A stretch of 37,443 nucleotides of DNA from Calocera cornea HHB12733 (taxonomy: Eukaryota > Basidiomycota > Dacrymycetes > Dacrymycetales > Dacrymycetaceae), in assembly GCA_001632435.1 (NCBI GenBank), contig KV423926.1, forward strand, positions 3,176 through 40,618, in the 5' to 3' direction. Below, in pieces: positions 1 to 27,834 of the stretch. Below the pieces are notes generated by a model. The model was not told where the DNA came from and did not search any database. It saw only the letters and a program-made list of their open reading frames with translations. The first letter of the stretch is position 1. Each line of letters starts with the position of its first letter. The position numbers were made by a program, and so were the translations under genes.

Positions 1-3000
1 GGTTCTGTAGCACTAACAGTTCTGCGCGTTCTTCCCGGCTGAAATCACTGTTGGAGCCATGTTGGGGCTTCCCGGTTAAACAAGCAAGCAAGTGATTCTT
101 CAGGCGTAAGGTGAACAGCTGGTGACGGCTGTTAACTGCCATGGGACAAGATGTGTCAAGTGACAACTCACCTGACGCATCCTGTCATTGGGCACCTCGT
201 GCTCCCAAAGCGTCAAGTTGGACCACTCGCGCGTGCTGACACCCATGTGGTATTGTGTGGCCGGATCCCCCATGCCCGCCTTGTCCTCATCAGCCACCGC
301 GGGTGGCCGAGATGGCAACATGCCCTCCGGCCCCGTGTGGAGTGCGGTGCGCTGCAGTCTTCCCACCCGACGCTCAATCTTGGCCACGCCGGTCACGTAG
401 TCAACCTTGCTTGATCGTCGGTAGTACTCTTTCACATGACGATGTGCGAGTTCACCCTACTAGTGGTCAGAACTGGCATCGGATGGCATTGCACTCCCTG
501 GGCTTACTGGTTCCGTAGAGTAGTTATCCATGGTACCCCGAGCACGAATGCATTGGCTGTAATCACCAATAAAGTGCCATTTAGGTGTCCTCAAGCTGAA
601 CTGCACGGGCGTTTTTGGCGGCTTGGCCTTCGGGCCGTTTTGGGACAGGAGCAGTGTCAGGTCGCTCCTCTGTCAGGTTGCAGCCACGCTTGCGCTTCTG
701 AGGTCCAGATGAGCCATTGACTGGTTTGACAGGATCCTCTTTGGGAAGTTCATATGTTGTGTAACGGACACAGGTCTCTGACTGGAAGCGTTGCATCAAG
801 TGACCCAGTCGCGTGGTAACCTGGTCCATCCGTTCCAAGGTGTCGCCGCCCACCATACACATTTTGGCCAGGCTATGCAGGAGTGTCAAGTTGTACAGGA
901 GGGACATGACCAGTTGATTATCGGGTTCTGGAATCAACCCTTCAAACACTGGTATGGTGCACTGTCAGGTAGTTGAAGTCAGCCACCTGACACAGGCATC
1001 ATCTGGACATGAACGTGCCTGTAGAAGATCCTCGTAGTCTTGGGCCACCAGACGAGACAACTTGGATACTCCATGAGAATCAAACGTCCTGATGGTCCCT
1101 CGTCCAAATGTTGGAACTTGAAGGTAGCGGAAATCTAGCATTATGATCGCGCGAGGTCCCACTGCGTGAAGAATTCGAATGAGGTGCTCCAGTAGTGATT
1201 TCCATACCCTGAGCTCAATCTCATGCATCAAATCGACAGGCAACATGTCAAAAACATTGAAACCCAGCGGTCGTAGCTTGCTAAATGTGTTCTATGCAGA
1301 AATTTATGAGACATCATGGATGTGTCAGGTGGGGTTTCACGCACCGGCACAGGCAGGTAGGAACACGATTTGAGAATGGCTTCCACTTTACTTGAGCCAA
1401 CGGTCAATCCTTGGTCGTAAATGGCGTCATAAGCCAAGGATACATCATATTGACGGGCGTGATTATCGACTCGGGCATTGTTGAGGCGAAGTCGCTTGTC
1501 CCGCACGCTTCCCATCCGGAATATCTCATTTTTGGGAACCATACAGCATGGGCACGGTGTTCCACCCATTTGCCGTATGGTGGCCAGCAGTGTCCTACAT
1601 ATTCAATTGATCAGTCTTTTGACTTCTGACTGGTCACTTGGTCACTTGACACACTTCTCAGGGTAGTCTGCACAATAGGCGAAAACGCGGAAGAACACGC
1701 GGCGCTCAAACCCATCTCCACATCTCATGGGAAATCCATTCTTGTAGCCCTCCATGAAGTCTGAGTTGAGTAGGGTGTCCCAGGCGGCATGCATCGTGAT
1801 ACTCTTGAGGTGTGAGAGCAGTCTAGAGCTGGGTGCGCGGCCCGTGCGTGCAAAGTACTCTTTGTGGAAAGAGTTGGGAATCTACATCCAAGTGTTAGGT
1901 GAGGATGGGAGGGTCATGAACTGTGGGAGCGTACCGTGGGGAAGTGAGCAAAGTGGTGGCATGCACCTGACGTAGGGCTACACCTCTCCCTCACTGACTG
2001 ATTAATGAACATAGCATATCCAGGCCAGAGATACGAATGCCCAAACTGCGTAGCTTGAGTGGCATCAGACCAGAAGCAGAAACCAAGAATCACCCGGGGA
2101 AGATCGCAGTTGTTGGGCGGCAACGACAAAATGCTGCGGAACTCCTCCAACATGTAATCTCCAGTGAATCCTTCAGAGAACACACGTTGATCCGGTTGCT
2201 GGGAAGTTTCGGCATGCTTCCAAAGCCCGAAGGGCTCCCAATGGAAGGCCGTGGAGCGCGGGTCATTTTCCACCACGTCCCTGGCCAGCTGTGTCAGGTC
2301 ACGGAAATGGAAGCCTGGTACCAGGTAATCCCAATTCCCATTCCCCTTGCCCAAAGGCACCTTCAACCTCAATACCCTGGTCTTCCACTCCGGGCCATAT
2401 TGGAACGGTCCATAGGAAGGGACGGCCTCATCGAGTTTCCAAAAACTGGCACGCCAGTTGACATGGCAAAGTTTATTGGCATCAAACCCCGGCATCCGAA
2501 AGAGCAAAGAAAGGCGCTCCAAATCGGCCAAAGACTTGACTTGACCATTCATCCAGTGCTGAGCAAGCAAGAATGCCTCTCGATTGGGCCAGGGGGAGTA
2601 TGCGTCAGGTGGAATCTGGCGCTGAGCGTCAAGTTGTTGAAGAAGCATCTTGGGGGCGGGAAGTCGCCGGAGGACGTATGTGGGCTGATTGGAAGCCATA
2701 TCCTGGTCATCGGGGATACTGACATTGAGTGTAGGGGGGGAGTGCACAGTTTCCGGCTCACCGCTCAGCAAGCTTTCCAACTCTGCATCGAGGTCTGGAA
2801 TGCAGAGCGGCCTTTGGAGGTACTTGCGATAGAGACCGAATCGATTGGGCTGGCTCTGCCATTCAGGGCACCCCAAAGACGTCTCTGTGTCTGGCATCCG
2901 GGACGGACTCAGGCTGTTAAGAGTGTCTGTCAGGTGCGGCGGAGGCTGCAGTGCAGGGGGATCGGCGTTGATCGTGGGCAAGAGGGCGGTGGAGACACTC

Positions 3001-3538
3001 CTGGCGGAGCTCTTGGGAAGATAGTCTTGGAATCATGCGGGGAGGTGGTTCCGATTGGCACGAGTGGCTCGCGGAATGTCACTTGACACAGGTTGATCCA
3101 ATAGGGGAGTGGGCAGGGCGCTGATTGGAACATAATGCCAGTGGAGACCTTGAGGCATTACATCATGGAAGGCATGGTCGGAGTCTCGGCTGGATTCGTC
3201 TTGCATATTCTCTTGGGGAGTATTCGAAGTGTCCCACCTGACACTTGACTGCAACCCAACATGACCGGTCAGCCGCGCCAGATTACCATAGTTAACAGAC
3301 TCACATCTCCTTCCCACATCTCCCCTTCAGTCTCCCCTGCCAGTGAAAGCTGTCGCTTGGGGTTGGAGTGCAACCTCACTCGGTCACGGGCTCTTTTCTC
3401 CAGGAGTTCGCGAGCGAAAAGGTCACCGTCATCCACCTCGTGCTCCCGTGCGAGAGCGTGAACTGGACACGCTCTCTGATGTAAGCTGTGCTTGCCCCGG
3501 TTGGCAAAGGATGCCCCACAAGCACATGACCATATCAT
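1..3538 (-). CDS. Plavaka-type transposase (3' end outside window)
   Basis: Cut-and-paste DNA transposase of the Plavaka group (CACTA-related). The start at 3538 opens a C2H2-like zinc finger (CAC-G-ASFANRGKHSLHQRACPVH). Family landmarks follow: FCFWSDATQATQFG and SGACHHFAHFP (about 2.1-2.0 kb), GGTPCPCCMVPK (about 1.56 kb), VDLMHEIELRVWKSLLEHLI (about 1.24 kb), VPTFGRGTIRTF and DYEDLLQ (about 1.1 kb), then GELAHRHVKEYYRRSSK (about 0.43 kb). They appear in the order usual for the family, read right to left. About ten short introns are needed; most give an in-frame join. One (1018-962) has GC-AG borders. The last visible exon near 1-50 still matches the family, so the protein continues beyond the window. 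No inactivating stop is required in this model, so the gene could be functional. Exon joins near 3.3-3.0 kb and 0.68-0.60 kb are my least certain. Confidence 0.88.
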
Positions 3539-3782
3539 GAGAGTATCAAGGTATGTTGGATGATGAAGAACCAACAAGGGGATAATGGAATCGTATTTGG
3601 AGGGGCAAGCTTTGGGAAGGACCACGACACGTCAGGTGCACCCTTGTCAGGTCGAGTCTCGGTGTGTCATGTGTGGGGGGGACTCTGGTACAGTGTACTC
3701 ATGGCTTCCTCTCCCATGACTAATTAGAATTCCCATGCATGAGTGAGGAATTCCACAGATGATGCGAGAAGGTTCCGTTGTT

Positions 3783-3893
3783 TTAGGTGCCGTAGTGTCA
3801 GGTCACCCCTGACCTAACGTTAGGTGCCGTTGCGTCAGGTCACCCCTGACCTAATGTTAGGTGCCGTTGTGTCATGCCCCCCCTGACCTAACA
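3783..3893. repeat. Three tandem 37-bp units carrying the element-1 motif
   Basis: Units begin at 3783, 3820 and 3857, each opening TTAGGTGCCG. Each contains GTCAGGTCA and CCTGACCTAA in inverted orientation; the third unit is diverged (GTCATGCC). The array lies between the divergent starts of the transposase (3538, -) and the DUF6698 gene (4013, +), so a shared control element is a reasonable inference. Confidence 0.9.
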
Positions 3894-3901
3894 CACGTGA
3901 T

Positions 3902-3942
3902 CGCAATCAGTGATAAGCGATGATTTGTTTACACTGATTGCG
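3902..3942. promoter_or_regulatory. 11-bp perfect dyad in the bidirectional promoter
   Basis: CGCAATCAGTG (3902-3912) and CACTGATTGCG (3932-3942) are perfect inverted repeats with a 19-base spacer. They lie 70 bases upstream of the DUF6698 start. The dyad could be a protein-binding site or hairpin; its function is not shown by sequence alone. Confidence 0.6.
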
Positions 3943-4012
3943 CTGGAGTGTGTGTCAGGTATGAAATGGACGCAGGAGGGGGGACCGGCCTGGCCCTTCC
4001 ATCGCCAGTGTC

Positions 4013-5590
4013 ATGTCATCTACCCCCATCCCTCCTAGCTCCACACTGGTCTCCTCCTCCCCAGGAGACTTGTCGTCTCCCCTTCCGCCATCGTCTCCCA
4101 CGGCAGCCTTCGCACATCAGGCTGCCAAGAGGAAGCTCCAACAAGCCGACTTGCTAGATGCTTCCAAGCGACCAAGGTAGGTGTCCTTTAACCCTTTCAG
4201 AACGACTTGACACAATTTGGGGTAGGACCGAATTCTGCCCCTTCCGCAATGCCGGCAAGCACATTGGGCAAGCCTTTTCTCTCTTTGGGAACATCGAGCA
4301 GGCTCTCAGAGATGGAAGGGAGTTCTTGGAGGTGGATGACCTCAATGACATTGAGGACGAGGAGTCCGTTTCCAGCCTTGTGTCAAGTGGCCGTCTCTGA
4401 TGCTGTATGGCTAGGATTTGGGAGAGTGTCCAATTGTACCGGAATATTGCCACAGTGATCCCGGAAATAGAGGATCACATTGCAAGTTGTACTCCTGGAG
4501 TACTGGCTGATGTTGCCAATTGGGTACGCCACTGGCCATGGTTGCACTTGACACTTGCATTGATGATGCCCCAGATCGAGGTGGGCCGCTGCGTTGGGCG
4601 GACCAACGACACGGCAACATGCAAGGAGATATGCATTGACATCTTGGGAGCTGTGGAGGGCTCTGGCATGACGGAAGGTCTGCATCGCAAGCGGAAGGCA
4701 GAATGCGGGTACAACCACCACATGACAGGGCGCTATCTGTGTCCAGTGGACCTGGCCAAGGAGTGGGAGGATCCCGAGTTTGGGTGAGCAGACTACCCTC
4801 AGCTGAATCACCCGCTGACCCCAATCGGTCTTCAAGGTGTCGAGCTAAGCTTCAGGATGGCCTGCCGATCATGAAGCTTAACGAAGAGACCAACGTCGAG
4901 GAAGAAATCGTGACGAACGAAGAAAATTTCCCACTCTTCTTGTACAAGAACAGAGAGTGCAACATGAACAAACTCACGGAAGGACTGATGGAGAACGAAT
5001 TTCTTTTGAGAGTACGTGATTCATTGGTATGTGAGAATAATGCCAGTACCTGACACAAGACCAGATGGGCATTGGCATCTTCATTTCACCATCTGTGGCT
5101 ACATTTTCGGTTTCAACAGGACCAAAAGGGTTAAGAAGTGCCAGACAGGGCAAGGCTGGACGCCACAAGATGACTGAAATCACCGTCGAGGCAATTGCCT
5201 ATGTAGCCATGCAGGTGTGTTAAGTGTGCTTGACACGGCGAAACATGTCCTGATTTTGGGCAGGCTCGCCTCGCGCTTTCTTCGGATGAACAATTCCATT
5301 CTGGGGGCCAAGGGAACTTCTCTTATCTTCTCTTCTACAACACTGTTGTCGATGTGCTTAGAAGTGACACCTTTGCACCCTTCTTGCCTCATGTGTTGGC
5401 CGTATGGAACCGGTCAGTGATGCACCTGACACATGACATGCTTATTTATTATCTACCCAGGCGACTTTTCCCGGATGAAACCAAAGCGAGACGGGAGCAC
5501 AAGAGCATGAGTAGTGGAACCGCTTTGAAGCTGCTCCGTCAGCTGTGCAAGGAGAACCAGATAGCTGGGAGGAGGAAGGATGTGTGGTAG
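4013..5590 (+). CDS. DUF6698-family protein carried by the Plavaka element
   Basis: Eight exons join in frame: 4013-4176, 4226-4381, 4415-4523, 4575-4783, 4837-5011, 5065-5214, 5264-5412 and 5461-5590. They give 413 aa. The N-terminus is Ser/Pro-rich with a basic patch (KRPR near residue 54). The DUF6698 core shows as GYNHHMTGRYLCP and EWEDPE, then FPLFLYKN, then IFISPSV, LRSARQGKAGRHKMTEITVE, AIAYVAMQ and a C-terminal region ending in VLAVWNR. In fungi this domain is a frequent companion of DNA transposons; its biochemical role is unknown to me. I chose the ATG at 4013 because the upstream ATGs at 3961 and 3966 open frames that do not join. Six of the seven introns contain the element motif YTGACAC or its complement. 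The 33-nt second intron (4382-4414) is unusually short, so that join is less certain. Confidence 0.85.
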
Positions 5591-6084
5591 TTTCTAGTCA
5601 ATATATGATTGTCACCCTGTGATCGGAGTGCGATGGAACCTGACACTAAGTGACCGCGGGATTGGCAGGTGGTGTAGATGCAGCACCTGATGTTCGGAGT
5701 GTTATGTCAAGTCACCTGACACATGTCTGGACGTGTCTGCATGACCTGACAGAGACACGACCAGTGATTGACAAGACGGATGAGCATCCAATCAGTACTT
5801 GCCAGAGTACTTCACACAGGCTCGCGCTTATCCGCCCTGGCAACCCTGACCAAGCTGTGTCAGGTGCCATATTATGACACAAAGCAATCAGTGCCTGACA
5901 CCCTGCCAAGCACAGCCCATCATGCGGCATGATGACATTGGCCCGGGAGCAAATGACAGGCATTGTTAACCCGGCGCAGGTGGTTACTAGGCCTTCTCAG
6001 GGACTTTTCAGATGGCCAGGCCTGACAGCCCTGACGGGTCTGATAGGGCCTGCCCAACCCTGAACATATCGCTGCGCGACTGTA
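5591..6084. other. Non-coding tail of element 1
   Basis: No convincing gene. The segment 5,640-5,895 is dense in the element-1 motif, for instance TGTCAAGTCACCTGACACA at 5704-5722. From about 5,900 to 6,084 I see no motif copies, no clear terminal repeat, and no similarity to the host repeat block that begins near 6,085. The true right end of the element should lie here. Confidence 0.5.
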
Positions 6085-7790: not shown

Positions 7791-9373
7791 TTATCCTGCC
7801 AGTGTCGCGTCGTCGTCCCAGTCGCCCGCAAAGAATTCCTTGATCCTTAGGTCGCCAGGATCGGGAATCCACGCATTCTCCGCCAAGTTGAGCAAGTGCC
7901 GTGCCGTGCGGCCTTGTTCATGGGCGTGCCGGAACCCGGGGTGCTCCAGCAAGAACTCGAGGAGCACCATGAGCCACTCTTCTGAGACATCTTGAATGAA
8001 GGGAGTTTTTGCGCGGACGAACGCAGGCACGGATTGCATACCCTCAAAGTCCAGGAATCGGAGCTTGATGACCTTCTCCTCTTGGAGGACTGCGATGACG
8101 TTGTGTAGGCTCCACATATCGCAAGCCCAAGGACCGTTGACACTGAGCGGACCATCAAACAAGCTGTCCGGGACTTCATCGATGATTTGTTTGACACGCT
8201 CAATGTTCGCTTGATCGATCGGTAACTCTTTGCCCGGCTGAGGCTGGTAAAGCATGCAGCCTTGAGCCACGCTCTTGAGCCATTCTCGTACGTCGTCCCA
8301 TGGACCAAGATCCTTTGGCGGGCCGATAATATACGGATTCTGCAAGCCTTTGAGTGTGACCATCCTACCCACCCGGATATCCAGGTCGCTCTCCGAGAGG
8401 TTTCGAATGCCCTCTATACTGCCGATAATCTCTAGGCTGCCGATTCGGGGGAGCTGTATGTCGAAGACCTGGAGCATGCACTGGGAGAGTTGGAAGAACG
8501 CGTCGCGCTTGCCTTCCTCGGAGAGATTCTCTAGAACTTCAATGAGAGGGACACCTGGGACCTGGCTTCCTAGTCAGACGACGACGAGCCATCAAGGGGA
8601 GACGCGTACGTATTCTTGCAGGGTCCACACTCCGCCCACCAGATTGTCCTTATCTTCGTCAAACGCGTAGACAGCAGGAACGGGCAGGTTTTTCTTGAAT
8701 AACGCGATCATAGATGCAAGCTACTCGAGCTCGTGAGCCAGATGTTGCTCATCTTATCTGCAATCTAACCTCGGATCTCTCTTTGTATTCCGGCCAAAAT
8801 GGGTGCCTGTGCTGGAACTCGTCAAAGACGGCAGATGTGATCCGGACAGCGTATGTTTTCTGGAGACGGGTTTTGAGCGTAACCACCTGAAAGTGATCAG
8901 AAATGAGATGCTGGACGGTGGATGAATCGCGCTTACAACATGAGACGCTCCTATTCGTGGCAATGAAAACGTAGAAAGATACGGAAGCAAGGGAGACGCA
9001 CCATAGCTCAGGAACGCGACTTCCCGGCTTCTATCGTGCTCATCCGGCAGCCGGTTGTTCAGAGCGAGTGCGATATTGTGGAGGTAGATGTGCGGAGGCC
9101 ATACATTCTGGGCACGAGTCAGTCATTGTCATGGGAGACGGGTCCAAGTGTGCCGCTCACGCGACCATCTTCGAGGAAGACTGGGCGGTCGTCGCTGTAA
9201 TAAAGATGACACAACTGCGCTGCACACTTGTGAAGACATACCCAAGCGTGGACTGCATTCGTTGCGATTGTCTGGGAGGAAGCAACGCGCTTGAGTGTTC
9301 GCACTGGTGTTACAGCCGAAAATCCCCGGCAGCGGTGAATAGCTCTGCAAAACAGCCCAAGAAGACGTTGCAA
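7791..9373 (-). CDS. APH/choline-kinase-like protein, copy 1
   Basis: Probable member of the aminoglycoside phosphotransferase-like kinase superfamily. Six exons line up with copies 2-4: the YYSDDRPVFLEDGR exon, an IYLHNIALALNNRLPDE exon, a 14-nt microexon (about 8938-8951), a VVTLKTRLQKTY exon, a LFKKNLPVPAVYAFDEDKDN exon and a 257-codon last exon. The last exon carries GPWACDMWSLHNVIAV and FLDFEGM, which stand where the family has its catalytic HxDxxxxN and DF(D/E) motifs. The expected catalytic-loop His is not visible. Exon 1 has a 2-base CG insertion relative to copies 3 and 4 that shifts the usual ATG out of frame; an upstream ATG at 9373 is in frame and is the start given. The substrate is unknown, and the start is doubtful. 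Confidence 0.7.
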
Positions 9374-17997: not shown

Positions 17998-18002
17998 TAC
18001 TA
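17998..18002. repeat. Target-site duplication TACTA (left)
   Basis: Direct repeat of 27830-27834, immediately outside the left terminal inverted repeat. Two of the five bases (TA) are palindromic and could be read as part of the inverted repeat, so the strict evidence is three to five bases. Confidence 0.75.
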
Positions 18003-18024
18003 CCGAAGCCCTAACTGGACAGCT
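18003..18024 (+). repeat. Left terminal inverted repeat of element 2
   Basis: Begins CCGAAGCCCTAACTGGACAG and ends CT; perfect inverted match to 27808-27829. Confidence 0.9.
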
Positions 18025-18232
18025 CGACCCCCGCGGGAAAGCACCCTTAACTGCGGTGATAAGATAATCCCTTTTGGCCGCATTACGGAAAATGTGGGTG
18101 CAGATTCCTCCTTTCAAACTCAGCTTATCGCTTGAGCCTCCTGGTCGACCGTCAGCTTACCGTTGCTTGCCAGTGTTTGCTCTCTCTCGCCCACTGTCCG
18201 CCGTCCTCGACCACTGTCTCAGCCTCAACCCT

Positions 18233-20217
18233 ATGCCGCCCCCGGCGCCCCTACCCATTCTTCCCCTCCCGGAGCCACCCCCCTTCCTCAACAAACTGCC
18301 CGCCAACAAGAACAAGTACATCCTTTCCTCGGCGATGCGCTTGAACCCCGACCAGGACTTGCTCCCAGCGGTTCCTGGTGGGCCACTTCCTCGTGAAGAC
18401 CGCCGCTTGTGGGCCCACTTCCACACTGTTACGGCCGCGTTCCTCGATGACAAGCATTGCCACCTCTGTTGGCATTTTCGGACATACGCGAAGGCCCTGT
18501 CGCCTGCGAACTGTGACTATCCTGGTCGATATCTTCTTGGTGAGCCCGTACCTGTACTCTTTGTACTTGACCAGGAGCTAAGTATATTTAGTCTGTTGCT
18601 ACCACGCAACCCATCCGAGCTATGACTGCAACTACAGAGGTGCGCACCATCCCCTGGTCTTGACCAGGAGATACTAATCTCATACAGAACTCGAATTCCA
18701 TGCTGAGCGTCGCATCAAAGCTCGACAGCCCCTGGTCGCGCCCCCTGGGCCCATCTACTTCCCCCCTGGGCACTCGGCGCAGTGGCTCCCTTTGCGACAC
18801 ACCCGTACCGCTCGCATGGTACGCGTCTGGCGTGAGCTGTCTCCCGAGCCGGTATCCGACCAGGAGGAATCCGATCCAGGACAGTCCGTGGACGCCAGCC
18901 AGGCCGAGTCGGACGAGCTCTCGGACGACCAGATGCAGAGCGATCCAGAGGATGAGGACATGCCAAGCGATCAGGATCCTGAGTCTGACCAGGAAATGGA
19001 CGAAGAGCCGCAATCGGACCACGACGTTCACGCCGACCAGGAGGAGCTTTCCCTGGTTGTCCCGCCCGCGATGCAGACCCATCACGAGCAACTTGACCCT
19101 GGTGACCTGGTCTTCCCCTACCAGGCGCACAACGACCAGGGAATGCTCGAGCCCACCGACCTGGTTGTATCCCCCGAGGCGCATGCCGACCAGGAGGAGC
19201 TGGAGCATGGCGACCTGGTCCTCTCCCCCGAGCCGGATGCTGAACCCGAATCTTCACCCCCTCGCCCGATGACCCATCTTCAACGGTGGGAGAACATGCA
19301 GGCGATCGTCAACGAGTATTGGAACGCGCAACAGTTCAACGATGAGGACAAGATGCGCCAGAGCATCCTCAAGCTGAAGGCAATCGAAGTTCACAAGATC
19401 GCCGTCAACTTCGAGAACCCCCAGGAGCTGACCGTCGGTCTGGTCGATGAAATCCTGCGCCGGCGTAGGAATCTCATCGACCCAGTTCCTGGTTTGGCCC
19501 AGGCCTGGGCCAAAGCTCATGCGGTACGTATGACAGCCGACCAGGAGTCACTCGCGCTGATTGTTCAAGCAGACGGTTATCAATGAAGACATGTACGACG
19601 CCGAGCCCATTCCTCGCCGAATGAACAACCTCCTGGCCTATTTCCGAGGTGATGGCCTCCCATTCGCCCTGCCGTTCCTTTATGAGCTCCTGGTCGAGAC
19701 CAGGCTCCTGGGCGAAACGATCCACCAGGAGTGTCTCCGCCTACTTACTCCCCTGGTGTGCATGTACTCCTAATTCCGTCACTGGCATCCACTAACCAGG
19801 ATTTAGGGCCGGTGTCCGGACCAGGCTGAGGCTGCGCGCCCGGATGACGAAGGCAAGAAGCGTCGCATGGACGACATGTACAATTACCTGACCTCAAGCG
19901 ACTGGCAACCCTTCATCGAGCGCGGCCATACGGTGTCCAAGGCCAGGTTCCTCCGCGATTTACTGGCACTCAAGCCCATGCAAAACTCGTATGCCCAGCT
20001 CAACATTCCCTGGAGAAAGATGGTCGATGCCGCGGATGAGGCGATTGACTTCATCAACAACGTGATGGATGCCCTGGACTTCCGGGCCGATCGCCTCTCT
20101 GAGGAAACGCTGGCAAGGGGCCAGGCTCTCCTGGACGAGGTCACGCCTGCCAATGCACGAACACAAGCTTGGCCTGGTGGACCAGGAATAGGTTTCATGG
20201 TTCCTCCTTCCTACTAG
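18233..20217 (+). CDS. Element-2 protein A (unknown function, paralogue of D)
   Basis: Five exons (18233-18539, 18592-18639, 18688-19523, 19570-19755, 19807-20217) give 595 aa. The N-terminal part is Pro-rich, then LPANKNKYILSSAMRLN and a Cys/His patch (HCHLCWHF, CC near residue 105, CNYR). The middle, about residues 160-300, is acidic with recurrent DQE and DLV triplets, which are in-frame translations of the element motif. The C-terminal part holds LLAYFRGDGLPFALPFLYEL and AQLNIPWRKMVDAADEAIDF. Protein D shares the ends of this architecture and two intron positions. All four introns carry the motif. An upstream in-frame ATG at 18092 is possible; I prefer 18233 because D starts at an equivalent distance from its conserved block. 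Family not recognised; a DNA- or chromatin-binding role is inference. Confidence 0.8.
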
Positions 20218-20468
20218 TTCTCTTCTCCTGGTTGTGTACCCTTAGTTAGGCATCGAATGCATTCCTTCGTTGGTCCATTCCAGGGCCTCAGTGCACCACT
20301 GTTTCCTGGTTAGTCATCACCTCCGGCTGTCTCCTTGGACCGACCAGGAGACAGTTCATCAGTGTATGAATCTGGTCACGCAGCTTCATACTGGTCGGTG
20401 GACCCTAAGGCTCCAAGTCCTGGCAGGTAGACTGATTCATTACCAAATATCATACCAGGACTACATAA

Positions 20469-22351
20469 CTACGTGTGTTGGGTCAGAGCTACTACAGGTA
20501 ATTCATCTTCATTCCCATCCTCCGAAAACGTGTCGCTATGGGCACCAGGATTCCCTGGTCGTTGACCATCCTGGGATGATATCACCTCGCGCAGACCAGG
20601 ACCAACCATGCCTGGGCCCCGATGTGCTTCGCCTGGGAGCACTTCGACATATTTGTGCTTGACCATTGCTTCGCGCAGCGCTCTTTCCTGGGCAACCTCA
20701 AAGATCTCGGGGAGTTCGCGGCCCGAAATCGTCTGGAGTCCCTCCAACATCATGAGGTACACACCCCAGAAAGATCCCCGGTTCACCTGAGGCTCACCCA
20801 GCACTGATCTTATATGTCACTAGTGGTCAAGCACAGGGAGACCAATTCACGTACGACCATACAGCTGTACAGCATGCTGGTTGAAGAGGTCTGGGACCAA
20901 TTGGAACACTTCGTGACCAGGAGGGGCATAGATCTCTCCCACGGCAGAGAGCTGCTCCTTTGAGACAGCAATCTATCGGCCGGAGTGAGATACAAAATTA
21001 CCAGGTGGTAAGTGACCAAAATCCTCACCTGGTAATTTCTATATGGACCATATTCTTCGGGCCGGCCCAGGAGCTCCAATGGAAGCTCAGCCGGCATGGC
21101 CTTGTGGTGGTCTTGGCGCGGCCGACTGGCACTGTGAATGCGAGCAAAACGATCCAAGTCTGCCTGGATCATGGGGACGGCAAGCCAACGGAATAACATC
21201 CTGGTCTCTGGATATGAGATTCGTCCATAACCCAGGAAGTAACAATGCGCACAGTTCCATGGGCTCGGAAGGGTCATACCACCCTTCCATGAGCCCGTCC
21301 TCGAACATTCTCTCCCAGCCCTCAGACCACTGTTGGCGTAGTTTTGACCAGAATATTTCCGGTTTAATATTCGTATGGCCTCGCATCCACTGATGTTGAA
21401 GAGTGCCCACCAGGGAGGGATCAAGTTGCCGACGAAGCGTGGTCTGCGCATTTGCTACACCATGGTTCTCTGTGCCAGGGTCGCTCTGGGTGAGCATTGG
21501 GATTCCTGGTCTCCAGTCAATACCCACAATAGATCGCATTCCTGGTTGGCGCACCTCCTATTTGCGATGCCGCCTCCAGGTAGTACCTGGTGATCAACCG
21601 TGGGTTGGAGTTGGTCCACCACACTTTGAGCCATAGGACCGCATTGGAAAAATTCTCTATTCCAACGTGGAGAAAGAGACCAAATCGTCGCCATTTGTCG
21701 TGCTGGTCCATGGACCACCGCTCGTGTGCTCCGGCACTCCAATGCACTGCCTTCTTGAGGCGTCGCGCCAGGCGCCGCTTGTTGCCGACAGGGTCAACCT
21801 GCTGCTGATATGCCTGGACTAGGTGTCTGACCAGGAACCATCAGTTCCAGGTCAGGACATGCCTGCAAGAGTATGCGCACCGAGAGACCATAATGCTCGC
21901 ATCCCTCAGGTGGTCCCGCATCGACTTTGCACCCAGTTGATTGGCTGAGTGCTCACGGAGCATCTCAATGAAAGGGGCCACTGTCTCCAGGTTATGTCCT
22001 TGCTGCCTGGTGGACAGGTAACCCCACTGTTTTCGGCGCCGCTGCAGAGTTTTGGTCCTATTGGGAGGGTTCAGATGCCCGACCAGGTAGGAGTTCCTGG
22101 TTGAAATCCACTTACGACAACGTCCATTGATGCAACTGCAGATCAACATCCTTCTTGATAGCGGCAAGCATGTTCTTGTCCCCATACCCATACTTGTAGT
22201 ACTTCTCCACCAGGGGACGAAGTACATGGTCGGGTACTATAGCAATAAGATGTGGTTAGACATGCTTGTGCCAAGGGGTGTTACACCACATACCAGTCTC
22301 CCGGTACTGATTTGGCCGTCGGGTTGTATGCTCTTCATCAGCACTGTCCAT
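20469..22351 (-). CDS. Integrase-core (rve/DDE) transposase of element 2
   Basis: Eight exons (22351-22294, 22236-22116, 22057-21881, 21826-21555, 21505-21253, 21200-21029, 20972-20855, 20803-20469) join in frame to 501 aa. An N-terminal helix-turn-helix-like part ends in TKTLQRRRKQWGY. The catalytic core has SMDQHDKWRRFGLF (Asp near 159), TQSDPGTENHGVANAQ (Asp near 218) and GHTNIKPEIFWSKLR (Glu near 259), a DDE triad. It is followed by LFRWLAVPMIQADLDRF and the C-terminal IYAPPGHEVFQLVP. These match the integrase-core protein family widespread in Agaricomycetes. The likely role is strand transfer at the terminal repeats with a 5-bp stagger. Five of seven introns contain the motif, and introns at 21554 and 21252 end exactly as GAGACCAG before GA. 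The catalytic residues are all present. Confidence 0.9.
20993..21038. repeat. 13-bp perfect inverted repeat spanning an integrase splice donor
   Basis: AAATTACCAGGTG and CACCTGGTAATTT flank about 20 bases. Both arms contain the element-2 motif. On the minus strand the right arm overlaps the splice donor of the intron 21028-20973, so an RNA hairpin could mask or present it. Confidence 0.75.
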
Positions 22352-22902
22352 CGTGGTTGTGAAGTAATAGTGGTCCACCTGGCCCCCCAGGCATGAATAT
22401 CACTTGTGAGAGTGCTGTGGGACGTGATTGCAGATGATCACGTGGCAGAATGGCGACCAAAGCAATTGGACATCCTGGTGGTCCATGACGTGATCAACGG
22501 AAGTTTCAGGACCCTCCAGGAAACCCGATAAATTCCGATAAATGGCGCCATGTGGATAGACCAGGGTCTGCCCGGCCCATGGACAGCTAGTTGGAAGCAT
22601 GTGAGCTGTCCACGGCAGCGGATTCCTGGTGTCCCAATTGGACCGGAGCCTGGCCAACCACAACATTGAGGAACTATTCCCTGGTCGATTGCCATTCTGT
22701 TGGACCAGGGGGCTCGCACGGTGGGCTGGTCTCCTCTGACAAGTCAACGAGACCAGGATCAGGTCAGAGCGGGGTCTGAAAACCAGGACATAGAAATGTG
22801 AGCGCAGCAGTGCATGCAAATCCTGGAATGCATCGCTCTCCTCCCATCATTCGTCTACACACACTGTAGCCATTCCTGGTTCGCCTTTGGCCGCTCAGCT
22901 GC
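22352..22902. promoter_or_regulatory. Divergent promoter region of integrase and alpha kinase
   Basis: No supported coding sequence. The region separates the integrase start (22351, -) from the alpha-kinase start (22903, +). It carries about eight copies of ACCAGG/CCTGGT, for instance near 22,462, 22,558, 22,627, 22,680, 22,706, 22,753, 22,782 and 22,875. Confidence 0.55.
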
Positions 22903-25765
22903 ATGGAAGAAATCATGCCCATCCTGACGGGGTGGGAAGGTAGTCTGTGTGAACGTCGCAGTTGCCACACAATCATTGGGCCCAATGACCCATTCCAGGT
23001 CATCCGGCCTCTTGGTCCAGATGGGGTTGCGCTTGCTCCCCAGAGGGTGTGCCTGCCCTGTTTTCAGCATTACCAGACCAAGCCTGGCACTCTTCGACGT
23101 GCTCCTGGTGGAGCCAGCGGTCCCCCAGGCAGTTCACAGACTGTGACTGCACCCCATCCATTCAGTCCGGATGCTCTAGCAGAACTGCGCAAACAAACTG
23201 CCAGTGCCCAGCGGATACACTTTCCAAGTGAGTGATTCACCCGACCAGGTATTCCTGGTGGCTAACACTCATCAGGTGGAAAGTCTCCAGTGAGAGCCAT
23301 TGGGTTGCAGCTTCAACCCCAATTCCCATCCGATCCGACTGGTCTGTTCACTGGATTGGCGACTGCCCATTTACCAGGAGCCAACACGTTGGCAAGCTAT
23401 CAGCAAAGTCTTCAACACAGTCTGGGTACTACAGGGCCAATTCCTGGTGCCCAGGCGTTGGGGTACAACTCCAACCATGCATCATACCATCAGAATCGTC
23501 AAATGGTCCGTATGACGGTCTCGGGGCCCAAAGCAGAATTGGTACGGGTAAATGCTTCGGTACAGCACCTGGTGGAGGGCAAGACCAAACCGAAGCAGTT
23601 GGGGGTACGTTGGATCCTCTGTTCCAACCAGGAATCGCTCCTAACTGTCGTCCAGAACACCTATGAACGACTCAACAGTGTTCCAGCTGCGCTACTCCCA
23701 GCTCAACTCAAGCAGTATCTCTTCACAGAGCTGTACCGGAAGATCCAACGCGATACGGCAAATTACGCGTTCAATCTCATTGACTTTGAGCTGTGTGGTC
23801 CTGGCCTGGCCGACCTGGAGAAGCATCCCGATATCCCACCTATGTATGACCAGTGTTTCCGCGAGGTGGTGAAGAATGGCATCTCCAGTCGAATGTTCAT
23901 CCCCAACCAGCTAGTTGAGGTTTTTCTCCTAGTCAAGAAAGAGGTGTGGCCGAATGTGCAGATGTGGATGGAGGATGCGGTAAGTAGGCTCGCGTACTCT
24001 GTCTAGCTCCTCCATCCTGGTGCTGATACCACCCAGGAGTTGCGTCGAGAAGGATCCGCTGGCTCTCAGAGAGAAATCATCCCACCAGGAACTGAAGGAC
24101 ATAGTGGTCTGACCGCCCCCGGAGTGCACCAGGAAGAGATACATGAGTTGGGCCCACGAGACCCCACACAAATGGGTGCTAATAAAGTGGGTGCATTCCA
24201 CGACCAGGGTTCTGATGCTAATATCCTGGTAGCATTTTCGAGCTATCGATAGTATCACACCTCGAGCCCAGAAGCGGATGAATCCCATGGTGGAAGTCAG
24301 CCCAGACGAAGTGGCCATCCGCAGGGCGCTCATGGGTTCAGACCACAACAAAGTGTCCCGCACCACAGGTGTGTTCAATACCTGGTCCTGGAATGGCAGA
24401 ACCAGGACTGACTGCCTGCAGGCACAATAACTGGACATGGCCAGTTCCTGCCTATTCCCGTCGTTGAATGGCACACCCTGGTGCACACGTTCAGTCGGCT
24501 CGAGATTGACTACGACAGGCTTGGCTGCGAATCAATTCTCCGCGTGAACGAGCATGCCCATAACATGCTGGGCCATCCTGGGACATTCAAAACGGCCCAT
24601 CCAGCACAAATCACTCTTGCCGAACTCCCGGTCCAGTGGGAACATCTTTCCACTCAGCCTATGCCGGTCTCCCGGCGTACCTCAGTCGCTGCGAAGCGTT
24701 ACTTTATCCGTGCCCAACGTGGTGGCTCCCGTATTCGAGCATCGATTCAAGTGGAGACCCGTTTTCTCGAACAGGAAGCCAACTTGCTTTACTGGGCGAC
24801 GAGCCTGCATGAGCTCTGCAAGGCATTTGTATCGGATTATCAAAGAACCCATCCTGGTTCATCAGCAAGCCATTTGGAGATCCCGGACACGCGAATGGTC
24901 CTGGGTGGCTTATTCCAATATGGACAAGGAAGTGATGAAAAGCGCAGGGGACTGGTCATATTGATTGAGGAATTGGTGACCCGGACGGAGACCAGTGGCC
25001 CAAAGGGGACTGAGTTTCTCAAGTTTATCAGTAATTCGTCGCCTATCCCACGAGAGACTGAAGGTGCCCCTGGTCTTGTTGGTCGTTTTTTGTCGTTCTG
25101 TCAACACATTCAATATGTGAAGACAGGCGGACATGCATTTATTTCAGATTACCAGGGTGAGCAACCCATGCAAACTAATACCCTGGTTGAAGTTGACCAG
25201 TCTACAGGATCTCTAACCCTGTTAAGTGACCCGCAAATTGTCACGAATCCGTAAGTTTACCCCAATCGTCACCAGGGATTACTCCTGGTCACTTACTTCA
25301 TGCCATAGGGAATTGGGTGCTATCTTTGGTGACGGCAATGTGAGTACGGCCTTCCATGATTTTCAGCGGCTGCACAAGTGCAACGAGTACTGCCAAGCCT
25401 TCGAGCTTGAGCCATTACAGACTCGCCGAAGTGAAGTCATAGTCAACAACTCCCTGGTCGACCAGGACTCGAGCGCTAGCCTGCCTTCGGTGAATGAGGT
25501 GATGAACCAAGCACTCGCCACCCAAACCGATCCTGGTAGGTCACCACTATTTGTGCCTTCACCTTGGGACCAGGACGAAATGCCTCAGACTGTGCAGAGT
25601 CGGTCGACACCAGCGATGACTGCTGACCAGGAAGAACAAGCGGGGATTTTGTCCAGTGGCCCCATAAAAGCAAAGCGAAACCCAGCCCCTGGTCGTCAAA
25701 GTGCGCGATTGATGGAAAAGAAAGCTGCAAGGCAGCCAGAGCCCAGTGAGCGTGTGGATGAATGA
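22903..25765 (+). CDS. Alpha-type (atypical) protein kinase, transposon cargo
   Basis: Seven exons (22903-23227, 23276-23604, 23656-23979, 24037-24228, 24272-24368, 24422-25250, 25309-25765) give 850 aa. The C-terminal third is an alpha-kinase domain: VAAKRYFIRAQ with the nucleotide-binding Lys near 514, FISDYQGE with the catalytic Asp near 665, LLSDPQIVTNP near 692, FGDGNV, and the zinc-binding signature HKCNEYC that fits the family's H-x-C-x3-C. The N-terminal part has paired cysteines (LCERRSC; VCLPCFQHYQTKPGTLRRAP), a likely zinc module. A basic tail (PIKAKRNPAPGRQSARLMEK) may aid nuclear entry. Alpha kinases phosphorylate Ser/Thr in helical targets; the target here is unknown. Nearly all introns carry the element motif. 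The extreme 5' end is the weakest part of the model; an intron starting near 22,939 is possible. Confidence 0.88.
25451..25464. repeat. 14-bp palindrome CCTGGTCGACCAGG (copy 1)
   Basis: Perfect palindrome made of two head-to-head element motifs. It is inside alpha-kinase coding sequence, read as SLVDQD. The same 14-mer recurs at 27,080-27,093. Confidence 0.9.
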
Positions 25766-26048
25766 GCCGATTAGACACTGCCTGGTTCCAGTCGATTTGT
25801 TCATGTACAAATCCTACATACTTCACTAGGAATATGAACTGTTGTGATTCCCTATGAAGCCTCTAACCCTGGTCGCCATGCGTAGGTGTGGTTCCCAAAC
25901 CAGGAATGAATTGCATTGCTAAGAGAAGTATTGCTAACCGTAACTAAAGTACCTACCATACAAGTTCCTGGTCTCCGACCACCAGCGAAACAATCCGAAC
26001 TCACTAAACCATTTGGAAACCCTGGTCGGGAACCAGCCCTAGCCCCAC

Positions 26049-27549
26049 TCACTTCGAACGCCGACCAGGGAAATGCTGATTGGCTGGGGCGAGACCAGGA
26101 TAGTTGGCAGGTGGTTGACGGAGCGGCTCAACTTCACCCCTGGCTTCCCTTTCCGCACGAGTGCGGTCACGGCGCGACGAGCTCGGGGCGATCTGCTCCA
26201 TGACCAGTTTCGCGTCGCGAAACTGCTTCTCAGTCATGCGATCGGTGCGGAAGTTTGTGCGTTCGAAGAAACGGTCCGTCACGGCGATGCGGTGGTCCAC
26301 GATGTTCAGGCACTTCTGCCAGTTGATGTTGAGTTGAGCGTGCGCGTCGTGAAGTTGCTTCATGAGTAAGATTTGGAGAACGATGAACTGCTTGGGGACG
26401 GCGTGACGTTGCTCAATCATGGGCTCCGGGTTGCTGATACCCATGAAGTTGGAGAACTGGTCCATGCGTCGCTTCCAGTAGTCGTTAGCCGGCCTGGGCC
26501 AGTCTCCCATCTCTGGAGGTCGCTGGCCCTGATTCCTGGTGAGATTGCAGACCAGGACGAACAAGAATAAGACGCACCAAGGTCTTAAGCTCAGTCAGCA
26601 GCGCCTGGTTGACGTCCTCCGCCAGGAAGCGATAGTCTTCCAACATCTCTCGAAGGAAGTAAGCCGCAAACGGTAGACCACTGGGTGTGCGAAAGTGCGC
26701 AATGAGCTCGGCAGCGCGCTGGTCCCAGTCAATGTGGCCCAACCCCGTCGAATCGTCCTACAACAAGTCAGAAGGGGGAACTCGGGGTAAATGACCAGGA
26801 CGCACCGGATGGGGAGCACCTTCCTGGTCATCCTCATCGTCCAGGTCATCCTCATCGTCCGAATGCAGATAATTGGCCGGGTTGCGCTCCACAGCGGGAG
26901 GGGGCGCGCGAACGGGACCAACGAACCCCAGGCCGTGGAGAGTAGGACGACGGAGGACCCAGTGCGGCCTGATGCCGGCAGGAAAGGTCTGCGCTTTGCG
27001 AGGGATAACCAGGGGTAGACGACGCGTGCGCCGCCAGTGACGTTCAGTCATCGTTTCTGTAAGAAGCGTGAGTAACTGATCCTGGTCGACCAGGAATTAA
27101 CGAGTGCGCACCTCTATACCCGCAGTTAACATACATGTCTTCGTAGAAGGGGCATACTGGTCCAGATAAGGTAAGTGAGAGACCAGGAAGGGAGGAGAAC
27201 GGTGCGCACTATAGATGGGCACGGTCCAGTGCGGCGTAAGCTTAGGGAGCTGCGGGACGACCTTGGGAGGCACGAAGTGGAAGCACATCACTTCCGAATC
27301 CTTGTACAGGTAGCGAACGTTGACAGTGAGGAGCAGTGGTCGGGGATCGTCGCGGTCATAGTCCTCGTATCCGGCCCTCAGAAGTGTGCGGCCGAGCAAG
27401 TACTGATGGCGTGGACCAGGAAGTAAAGCGAGCAACGTTTCGATTTCCTGGTTGGTGAGATTCTCCTTGTCCGCGAGCGGGTGATCGGGAAGCGGCGGTC
27501 CCAGGTCGGGCGGCATGAGCACCGCATTCGGTTCGGGTAAGTCGGCCAT
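26049..27549 (-). CDS. Element-2 protein D (unknown function, paralogue of A)
   Basis: Five exons (27549-27210, 27156-27112, 27056-26806, 26757-26578, 26528-26049) give 431 aa. It parallels protein A: LLALLPGPRHQYLLGRTLLR, a Cys patch (MCFHF; ICPFYEDMYVNCGYR), an acidic stretch (SDDEDDLDDEDDQEG), LIAHFRTPSGLPFAAYFLRE and AQLNINWQKCLNIVDHR. The intron after the CGYR/CNYR exon and the one after the LKTL/LTPL segment sit at the same places and phases as in A, so the two genes arose by an ancient duplication. D lacks most of A's acidic repeat region. It reads inward from the right terminal repeat. All four introns carry the motif, one as a perfect 14-bp palindrome. Function unknown. Confidence 0.82.
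27080..27093. repeat. 14-bp palindrome CCTGGTCGACCAGG (copy 2)
   Basis: Identical to 25,451-25,464 but inside the second intron of gene D. The equivalent intron of gene A has a spaced version of the same palindrome (CCTGGTCTTGACCAGG, 18,654-18,669). Confidence 0.9.
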
Positions 27550-27735
27550 GTTGACCAGGAGAGGGGAAAGACAATGAGCCCAGGGGAGGGGTAAGACAAT
27601 GAGACGAGAGCTGGAGTGTGCTGGCAGGCGACCAGGTATATGCGTGCCCTGGGCGAAAATTGAAAGTCCGACCGAGCGGAAGCATCTGGAAGAAATGATT
27701 TTCGCCTTATCTAAAGGCCGAGATGGGTGGCGCGT

Positions 27736-27780
27736 CAGCTGTCCAGTAAGACCCGTGGCTGGAAGCCCTGGGTGGACAGC
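27736..27780. repeat. Subterminal TIR-like copies at the right end of element 2
   Basis: AGCTGTCCAGTAAGAC (27,738) repeats the terminal AGCTGTCCAGTTAG. GAAGCCCTGGGTGGACAGCC (27,761) is the same sequence in inverse orientation. Together with the terminal repeat the right end has three copies, while the left shows only one. Confidence 0.7.
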
Positions 27781-27807
27781 CAGGACCCGGGAACAGACGA
27801 AAACCGA

Positions 27808-27829
27808 AGCTGTCCAGTTAGGGCTTCGG
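27808..27829 (-). repeat. Right terminal inverted repeat of element 2
   Basis: Reverse complement of 18003-18024 over all 22 bases; ends GGGCTTCGG. Confidence 0.9.
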
Positions 27830-27834
27830 TACTA
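27830..27834. repeat. Target-site duplication TACTA (right)
   Basis: Direct repeat of 17998-18002, immediately outside the right terminal inverted repeat. Confidence 0.75.

What the first reader, a model, noticed from the sequence alone, without database searches (positions are those of the whole stretch)
18140..27640. Element 2 is saturated with one private motif, ACCAGG/CCTGGT, placed in almost every intron
By eye there are about 100 copies in 9.5 kb, some twenty times chance. Of the 24 or so introns I could model in the four genes, about 19 contain it. Conserved exons (19,860-20,160; 24,490-24,840) have none. This is a pattern kept by selection on non-coding space, not simple repeat expansion. 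The likeliest meaning is recognition of the element by one of its own proteins (A, D or the integrase). Splicing control and anti-silencing are the main options.
Basis: partly seen in the sequence, partly recalled or inferred. Interest (0 to 1): 0.92.

Follow-up and report, generated by a model that had tools for sequence, protein, structure and literature searches.

The report
Private DNA passwords in fungal transposons
In a jelly-fungus genome, related jumping genes each carry their own short DNA word, planted dozens of times in introns and other loosely constrained stretches and swapped for a different word in sister lineages, which looks like a self-recognition code that lets each element act only on its own copies.

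Summary
Element 2 (18001-27831; 24-bp inverted repeats) is an IS3EU-like transposon of Calocera cornea with an integrase-like transposase, an alpha-kinase and two paralogous orphan proteins (A, E). It holds 104 ACCAGG/CCTGGT (10.6/kb; genome sample about 0.5/kb); 19 of 21 modelled introns touch one.

Relatives make it a strong finding. Two ~70%-identical copies (possibly halves of one element) share the word and keep its sites about three times more often than other 6-mers (introns: 15/27 versus 50/693). Four more distant copies are strongly enriched for other words: ACCAGT, ACTAGC, ACGACCA, AGCCGGC; the first three also occupy most of the homologous introns located. Four words are variants of one nine-mer. 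A Harbinger element nested in one copy (AGGATGCGC) and a Plavaka element in this window (TGTCARGT) have words too.

Best explanation: selection maintains a family-private double-strand DNA code read by an element-encoded protein, most likely for anti-silencing as in Arabidopsis VANDAL/VANC. Conservation and lineage-specific switching are shown; reader and function are inferred. Splicing control is disfavoured (16 sense, 14 antisense); 53 of 104 sites are exonic, so "non-coding only" is wrong.

The parts
18001..27831 (.). Element 2, complete IS3EU-like DNA transposon carrying the private word ACCAGG (104 copies)
   Evidence: 24-bp identical inverted termini, flanks CTATAC/CTATGC; gene content
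18001..18024 (+). left terminal inverted repeat TACCGAAGCCCTAACTGGACAGCT; preceded by CTATAC
27808..27831 (-). right terminal inverted repeat, identical over 24 bp; followed by CTATGC (5 of 6 match)
18233..20217 (+). gene A, 5 exons, 595 aa in my model (CALCODRAFT_480175, 594 aa), orphan protein; 4 of 4 introns hold ACCAGG
20470..22351 (-). DDE integrase-like transposase gene, 8 exons (start of exon 1 approximate); 5 of 7 introns touch the motif
   Evidence: PF24764 E 2.1e-10 in P0007; models
23140..25765 (+). gene D, alpha-kinase domain protein (5' start not settled); 6 of 6 modelled introns hold the motif
   Evidence: PF02816; model
26049..27549 (-). gene E, 5 exons, paralogue of A (34% identity over the C-terminal domain, introns at matching positions by eye); 4 of 4 introns hold the motif
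18540..18591 (+). intron A1 with ACCAGG at 18570 (example; the full list of 21 introns is)
18653..18668 (.). example of a divergent motif pair CCTGGT-N4-ACCAGG inside intron A2
18859..19220 (+). acidic low-complexity stretch of gene A dense in exonic motifs
19860..20160 (+). conserved C-terminal domain exon of A: no motif
24490..24840 (+). conserved kinase-gene exon stretch: no motif
1..5920 (.). neighbouring Plavaka (CACTA-type) transposon with its own private word TGTCARGT (25 copies in 1-5950; none in the other 31,493 bases); left end outside the window, right limit approximate

Best explanation
Element 2 and its relatives carry a family-private DNA recognition code. A short double-stranded word (GACCAGGA here) is planted roughly once per 100 bp, in either orientation, wherever protein coding allows: in nearly every ~50-bp intron, between genes and in weakly constrained exons. 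Point mutation creates the sites and selection keeps them; when a lineage's reader protein changes specificity the set is rewritten, partly at the same places (GACCAGGA, GACCAGTA, GACTAGCA, CGACCAACA). Dense binding along the whole element would mark it as self. The likeliest use is sequence-specific anti-silencing, i.e. lifting host repression on own copies only, as VANC does for VANDAL. Shown: enrichment, confinement to the element, site-specific conservation, lineage-specific words in homologous introns. Inferred: protein reading, A/E as reader, anti-silencing. The confidence given is for a private code read by an element-encoded protein; anti-silencing as its use I put at about 0.5. The first two rivals differ in the use, not in the code.
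For: Density and sharpness. Sites kept in copies of about 70% identity: versus C155 27 of 45 ungapped sites (60%) against 20% of all 6-mers, versus C219 29 of 53 (55%) against 15.5%; introns alone 15 of 27 against 50 of 693 other 6-mers, Fisher p 3e-10. Few element-2 sites fall in alignment gaps (4 of 49; 1 of 54), so most arose by substitution. Word-by-element table: ACCAGG 10.2-10.6/kb in C13, C155, C219; ACCAGT 7.9 in C43; ACTAGC 3.0 in C26; ACGACCA 4.8 in C5; AGCCGGC 3.3 in C142; background for these words 0.13-0.51. Homologous introns that could be located hold the lineage's own word: C155 9/10, C219 5/5, C43 11/12, C5 7/8, C26 7/11. In-place replacement: 5 of 13 ACTAGC of C26 coincide with one of 42 aligned ACCAGG sites, against 1 of 23 other look-alike words; C43 6 of 44 ACCAGT against 1 of 18, weaker (random placement would give about 0.6 for C43). 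Sharp switch of word at the border of a nested element. A/E domain found in all 7 places with a strong word and in 0 of the 5 others and 0 of 15 background loci. The host probably methylates transposons: CpG observed/expected 0.64-0.97 in the elements examined against 0.98 in 150 kb of background, with TpG+CpA up in most, and DNA methylase domains are present.
Against: No binding, methylation or expression data. The model of protein A is poor (mean pLDDT 45.6) and its C-terminal domain (64.9; the only part fold-searched) has no significant structural match. C155 and C219 may be two halves of one element, so the conservation test may rest on one relative. C82 has a moderately enriched gapped word without a detectable A/E gene. 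C142's word is in only 2 of 9 located introns, C82's in 4 of 10. In C5 coincidence with element-2 sites (2 of 24) is no better than for look-alikes (2 of 33). C275, C47, C65 and C127 have no clear word. The table is not perfectly diagonal: ACCAGT is 2-3 times background in C13, C155, C219, C26, C5, C275 and C47, and ACGACCA about 4-6 times in C13, C155, C219 and C43. CpG depletion does not separate elements with and without a word (C275 0.75, C47 0.74, C13 0.74; one of 15 background stretches 0.70), so any escape is incomplete. Only 12 of about 28 places were read, mostly the most similar to element 2.
Confidence: 0.75

Rival explanations
1. Transposition-linked recognition: the words are internal binding sites of the transposase or a helper protein (assembly, transposition enhancer, or marking self DNA against self-insertion), not anti-silencing.
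For: Words are element-wide and lineage-specific, as transposase or helper specificity would be; the nested Harbinger element carries DDE_Tnp_4 and a protein with a sub-threshold DUF6818 match, a possible helper.
Against: The word is absent from the 24-bp terminal repeats, the first and last copies lying 139 and 195 bp inside; strong words go with A/E, while C275, with an annotated 490-aa transposase and no A/E found, has no clear word, though only 9 kb at a contig end was read there.
Confidence: 0.2
2. Element-wide transcriptional control: an element-encoded factor binds the words as dispersed activator (or auto-repressor) sites for its four genes.
For: Intergenic density is 11.4/kb, and 9 sites lie between 22352 and 23139, between the divergent transposase and kinase genes.
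Against: Introns are the densest class (27.5/kb) and exons hold half of all sites; about 100 sites are more than promoter control should need.
Confidence: 0.15
3. Splicing control: an intronic RNA signal.
For: 19 of 21 introns touch the motif and four sites overlap splice sites.
Against: Both orientations relative to the transcript, 16 and 14; 74 of 104 sites are outside introns; homologous introns of other lineages carry different words.
Confidence: 0.03
4. Neutral cause: repeat expansion, biased mutation or gene conversion between copies spreads the word.
For: Each element has a dominant word, as a mutational signature would give.
Against: Almost no tandem structure; identity peaks over the 6-mer and drops beside it; neighbours with the second to fifth base changed are 0.13-1.6 fold, ACCTGG (3.2) excepted; homologous introns in one genome carry different words.
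Confidence: 0.02

Closest known systems
VANDAL transposons and VANC proteins (Arabidopsis; Hosaka 2017 PMC5735166, Sasaki 2023 PMC10398659; passages seen)
   Same: Short family-specific words at high density inside the element, notably in introns and intergenic DNA; related elements use different words (YAGTATTAY for VANC21; AGTTGTCC/AGTTGTAC for VANC6); self-restricted action.
   Different: Here fungal IS3EU-like (plus Plavaka and Harbinger), not Mutator-like; [quoted passage not shown] no VANC homologue seen; demethylation untested.
IS3EU/GingerRoot DNA transposons (PMC10045372, PMC12730594; passages seen)
   Same: TA..TA ends, about 6-bp target duplication, integrase-like transposase; alpha-kinase and transposase in opposite orientations (stated for TET+ families).
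   Different: Two extra paralogous proteins A and E; no TET/JBP gene in my four gene models; TIR 24 bp (over 30 bp in the TET+ rust elements); no private word code in the passages seen.
TnpA of maize En/Spm (recalled; one search found no held paper)
   Same: Element-encoded protein binding many short sites, linked to demethylation (recalled).
   Different: Sites are subterminal, not element-wide (recalled).

Membership tests
IS3EU superfamily | TA..TA termini with inverted repeats | tested here: met
   TACCG...CGGTA, 24-bp perfect TIR
IS3EU superfamily | 6-bp target site duplication | tested here: inconclusive
   CTATAC versus CTATGC, 5 of 6 match; no empty site or second boundary found
IS3EU superfamily | integrase-like DDE transposase of the IS3EU clade | tested here: inconclusive
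   PF24764 integrase core E 2.1e-10; no tree with reference IS3EU transposases was made
IS3EU superfamily | alpha-kinase gene opposite to the transposase (stated for TET+ fungal families) | tested here: met
   PF02816 gene on +, transposase on -
VANDAL/VANC anti-silencing | family-specific short word dense in the element and changed in relatives | tested here: met
VANDAL/VANC anti-silencing | words accumulated as tandem repeats in one orientation | tested here: not met
   52 plus and 52 minus; spacing as random; 88 of 9,860 bases tandem
VANDAL/VANC anti-silencing | Mutator-like element encoding a VANC homologue | tested here: not met
   transposase is integrase-like; protein A has no match in the Pfam copy and no hit but itself at E<=1e-3 among the 7,998 candidates scored; VANC itself was not compared directly
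VANDAL/VANC anti-silencing | element-encoded protein binds the word and removes methylation | not testable with these tools
   needs binding and methylation data

The most novel reading that the evidence does not exclude
In this fungus DNA transposons of at least three superfamilies (IS3EU, Plavaka/CACTA, PIF/Harbinger) independently write private, element-wide DNA words into introns and tolerant codons and rewrite them when lineages split: a general self-address code for mobile DNA, evolved convergently with plant VANDALs and forced by a host silencing system that acts on whole elements.
Probability: 0.4. Interest if true: 0.95.

Novelty: new variant of a known kind. Interest (0 to 1): 0.87.

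Why it matters
Sequence-specific self-recognition of a whole transposon was known to me only from plant Mutator-like elements. A fungal counterpart, built by point substitutions in introns and codons, with at least five words among related elements of one genome and a tree to set them on, makes the co-evolution of a DNA-binding protein and about 100 scattered target sites directly readable: one can see which bases change, where, and beside which protein changes. It would also give new natural DNA-binding specificities, show that introns of transposons serve as storage for recognition sites, and suggest that element-wide anti-silencing is common outside plants.

Tried and rejected
Splicing signal: rejected on orientation, exonic sites and different words in homologous introns. 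Tandem-repeat expansion: rejected by masking. Fixed or even spacing of sites: C13, C155 and C219 no more regular than random placement (CV 0.98, 0.90, 0.90 against 0.97-0.99); short divergent and convergent pairs exist but are few. Structure of protein A: low confidence; fold search of its C-terminal domain gave no significant match. PDB sequence search: one chance-level hit, E 5.5. PF28346 is listed as a precomputed domain of P0127, but the Pfam copy held here gave no match. Apparent words AAATCAT (C127) and ATACCAA (C65) are tandem arrays and vanish on masking. An apparent frameshift in the transposase was my misreading of an intron; the annotated protein is open. A search for ends in the other loci found none; most fetched stretches may stop short. 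The first protein alignment of A/E fragments was too poor and was not used for folding. Other species: their DNA is not held; only protein relatives of the transposase and kinase were seen. Literature searches: searches found no paper; some searches gave listings of which I opened only the papers named in Closest known systems; no title or abstract start told of fungal word codes.
Full report
Where it is. The window lies on contig C13 (342,448 bases) of a 32.1-Mb genome. Database names of its proteins identify the host as Calocera cornea HHB12733, a dacrymycete basidiomycete.

Observation. There are 104 ACCAGG/CCTGGT between 18140 and 27640, 52 per strand. First-order Markov simulations give 7.3 +/- 2.7 (300 runs). 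Eighteen 10-kb stretches of the genome gave 97 in 180 kb, about 4.8 kb of it N, two of them overlapping the window's ends. The extended consensus is (C)GACCAGGA. GACCAGGA occurs 33 times in the element and 1,778 times in the genome. Single-base neighbours with the second to fifth base changed are 0.13-1.6 fold relative to the rest of the window, except ACCTGG (3.2); outer changes are up: CCCAGG 4.8, ACCAGC 2.9, ACCAGT, GCCAGG and TCCAGG about 2 fold, so the CCAGG core may tolerate some variation.

The element. Inverted 24-bp repeats TACCGAAGCCCTAACTGGACAGCT bound it at 18001 and 27831, flanked by CTATAC and CTATGC. Four genes have open spliced frames: A (+), an integrase-like transposase (-; PF24764), D (+; alpha-kinase PF02816; its start is not settled) and E (-). 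A and E are paralogues (34% identity over the C-terminal domain) with introns at matching places by eye. Kojima reports TA..TA ends and usually 6-bp duplications for IS3EU and, for TET-bearing fungal IS3EU, transposase and alpha-kinase in opposite orientations; element 2 fits, though I made no reference tree.

Where the word sits. Introns 30 sites in 1,092 bases (27.5/kb, four of them overlapping an intron edge), intergenic 21 in 1,846 (11.4/kb), exons 53 in 6,893 (7.7/kb; 12.3/kb in A). Of 21 introns 19 touch it and 18 contain it whole. In introns 16 are sense and 14 antisense. Exonic copies use several codon frames. I read this as a double-strand DNA signal put wherever coding permits.

Relatives. 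The genome holds 22 transposase-like and 23 kinase-like matches (candidate lists were capped near 24), about 28 distinct places by my count. After masking tandem repeats the top words of each were compared with 19 background stretches; the highest background scores were GTGTCA/ACCTGAC, which belongs to the Plavaka element of this window, and runs of C. Results: C13, C155, C219 ACCAGG (102 vs 4.9 expected, 44 vs 2.5, 55 vs 4.4); C43 ACCAGT (69 vs 4.4); C26 GACTAGC (21 vs 0.5); C5 ACGACCA (43 vs 1.2); C142 AGCCGGC (31 vs 1.3). C82 has a weaker gapped word, CTGN7AGC (38 vs 5.9). C275 shows a hint only; C47, C65, C127 none. In the cross-table each strong word is highest in its own element by 5 fold or more; ACCAGT is 2-3 times background in several relatives and ACGACCA about 4-6 times in C13, C155, C219 and C43. 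Written side by side with their flanks, four words are variants of one nine-mer: CGACCAGGA, CGACCAGTA, CGACTAGCA, CGACCAACA. A FastTree of kinase plus transposase joins the ACCAGG copies (support 1.0) with C43 as sister (0.83), then C26 and C5; C82 groups with C275 and C47 (0.92), C142 near them without support (0.12); C65 and C127 lie outside. The transposase alone pairs C43 with C26 (0.50) instead.

Selection. Against C155 (71.6% identity) 27 of 45 ungapped motif sites are intact versus 20% of all 6-mers; against C219 (68.6%) 29 of 53 versus 15.5%. In introns 15 of 27 versus 50 of 693 for 6-mers away from motifs. Identity rises over the six bases (0.76-0.89) and is 0.47-0.80 beside them. Sites not shared are balanced by sites elsewhere, so density stays at about 10/kb: conservation with turnover. 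Between lineages the word is replaced partly in place: 5 of 13 ACTAGC in C26 fall on one of 42 aligned ACCAGG sites, look-alike words 1 of 23; in C43 6 of 44 ACCAGT against 1 of 18 look-alikes, a weaker contrast; in C5 the test is negative, 2 of 24 against 2 of 33. Homologous introns that could be located carry the local word in 11 of 12 (C43), 7 of 8 (C5, either of two forms), 7 of 11 (C26, counting ACYAGC), 9 of 10 (C155), 5 of 5 (C219), but only 2 of 9 in C142 and 4 of 10 in C82; ACCAGG was in 0 of 27 introns of the four places without a clear word. Introns were located by extrapolating exon matches, so their edges are approximate.

Confinement. In C219 and C155 the ACCAGG stretch ends abruptly and AGGATGCGC begins. 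The two halves fit one ACCAGG element split by an insertion between kinase and transposase, across a contig break (inference); if so, C155 and C219 are one relative, not two. The insert encodes a DDE_Tnp_4 transposase, i.e. PIF/Harbinger type, and its word recurs elsewhere in the genome, e.g. on C179. The Plavaka element at window 1-5920 (PF18759) has TGTCARGT 25 times against none in the other 31,493 bases, and 5 of 6 presumed introns of its DUF6698 gene hold the core of it. So three superfamilies show private words.

Who reads it. A profile of the A/E C-terminal domain hits only the window (A and E), C155, C219, C43, C26, C5 and C142, the places with a strong word, and none of C82, C275, C47, C65, C127 or 15 background loci. 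The fetched stretches may miss genes at their edges, relatedness alone could cause part of this, and C82 has a moderate word without A/E. In the whole genome weak A-like matches also lie on C41, C72 and C19, where the word is unknown. A is nearly an orphan and its predicted structure is poor. Plavaka and Harbinger words need other readers.

Function. DNA methylase domains are present and the transposons are CpG-poor relative to background (0.64-0.97 versus 0.98), so the host probably methylates them; depletion is alike in elements with and without a word. Dense private words on the whole element then make sense as anchors for a self-restricted anti-silencing protein, as with VANC. That step is inference; transposition-related or transcriptional uses remain possible.

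Noticed in passing
window 1-5920: Plavaka (CACTA-type) transposon with a DUF6698 gene and its own private word TGTCARGT, 25 copies against 0 in the other 31,493 bases; sequences sharing its word pairs recur on many contigs.
   Followed up: partly
L003:1069-4185 and L023:6586-8677: PIF/Harbinger-type element with private word AGGATGCGC, sometimes as the palindrome AGGATGCGCATCCT, nested in an ACCAGG element that seems split over two contigs.
   Followed up: partly
L028:320-8226: C142 element also has about 10 interspersed copies of a CAGCAAGATTACATACCA-like sequence, partly within ~120-bp repeats.
   Followed up: no
L026 (C82), whole: Gapped dyad word CTGN7AGC (38 vs 5.9 expected) and a 174-bp tandem array at 8667-9181.
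   Followed up: partly
L031:1797-2170; L032:7359-7898: 8-bp-unit tandem arrays (such as TATGTTGG; TCATGATT) in the C65 and C127 stretches, whose elements have no dispersed word; perhaps closer in form to VANDAL repeats (speculation).
   Followed up: no
G000 C41:164562-164945: A-like domain (37% identity) without a transposase or kinase match on that contig; could not be fetched.
   Followed up: no
L025; G000 C26:228585-239618: Around the C26 transposase and kinase an E-like gene lies on the side where element 2 has A, and an A-like gene 4.6 kb beyond the kinase; swapped order or a second element.
   Followed up: no
G000 C49:9728-10072 and C100:113531-113803: Two TET/JBP-like matches below the Pfam cut-off.
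   Followed up: no
window 3783-3892: Three 37-bp tandem units containing GTGTCAGGTCACCCCTGACCTAAC inside the Plavaka element.
   Followed up: no
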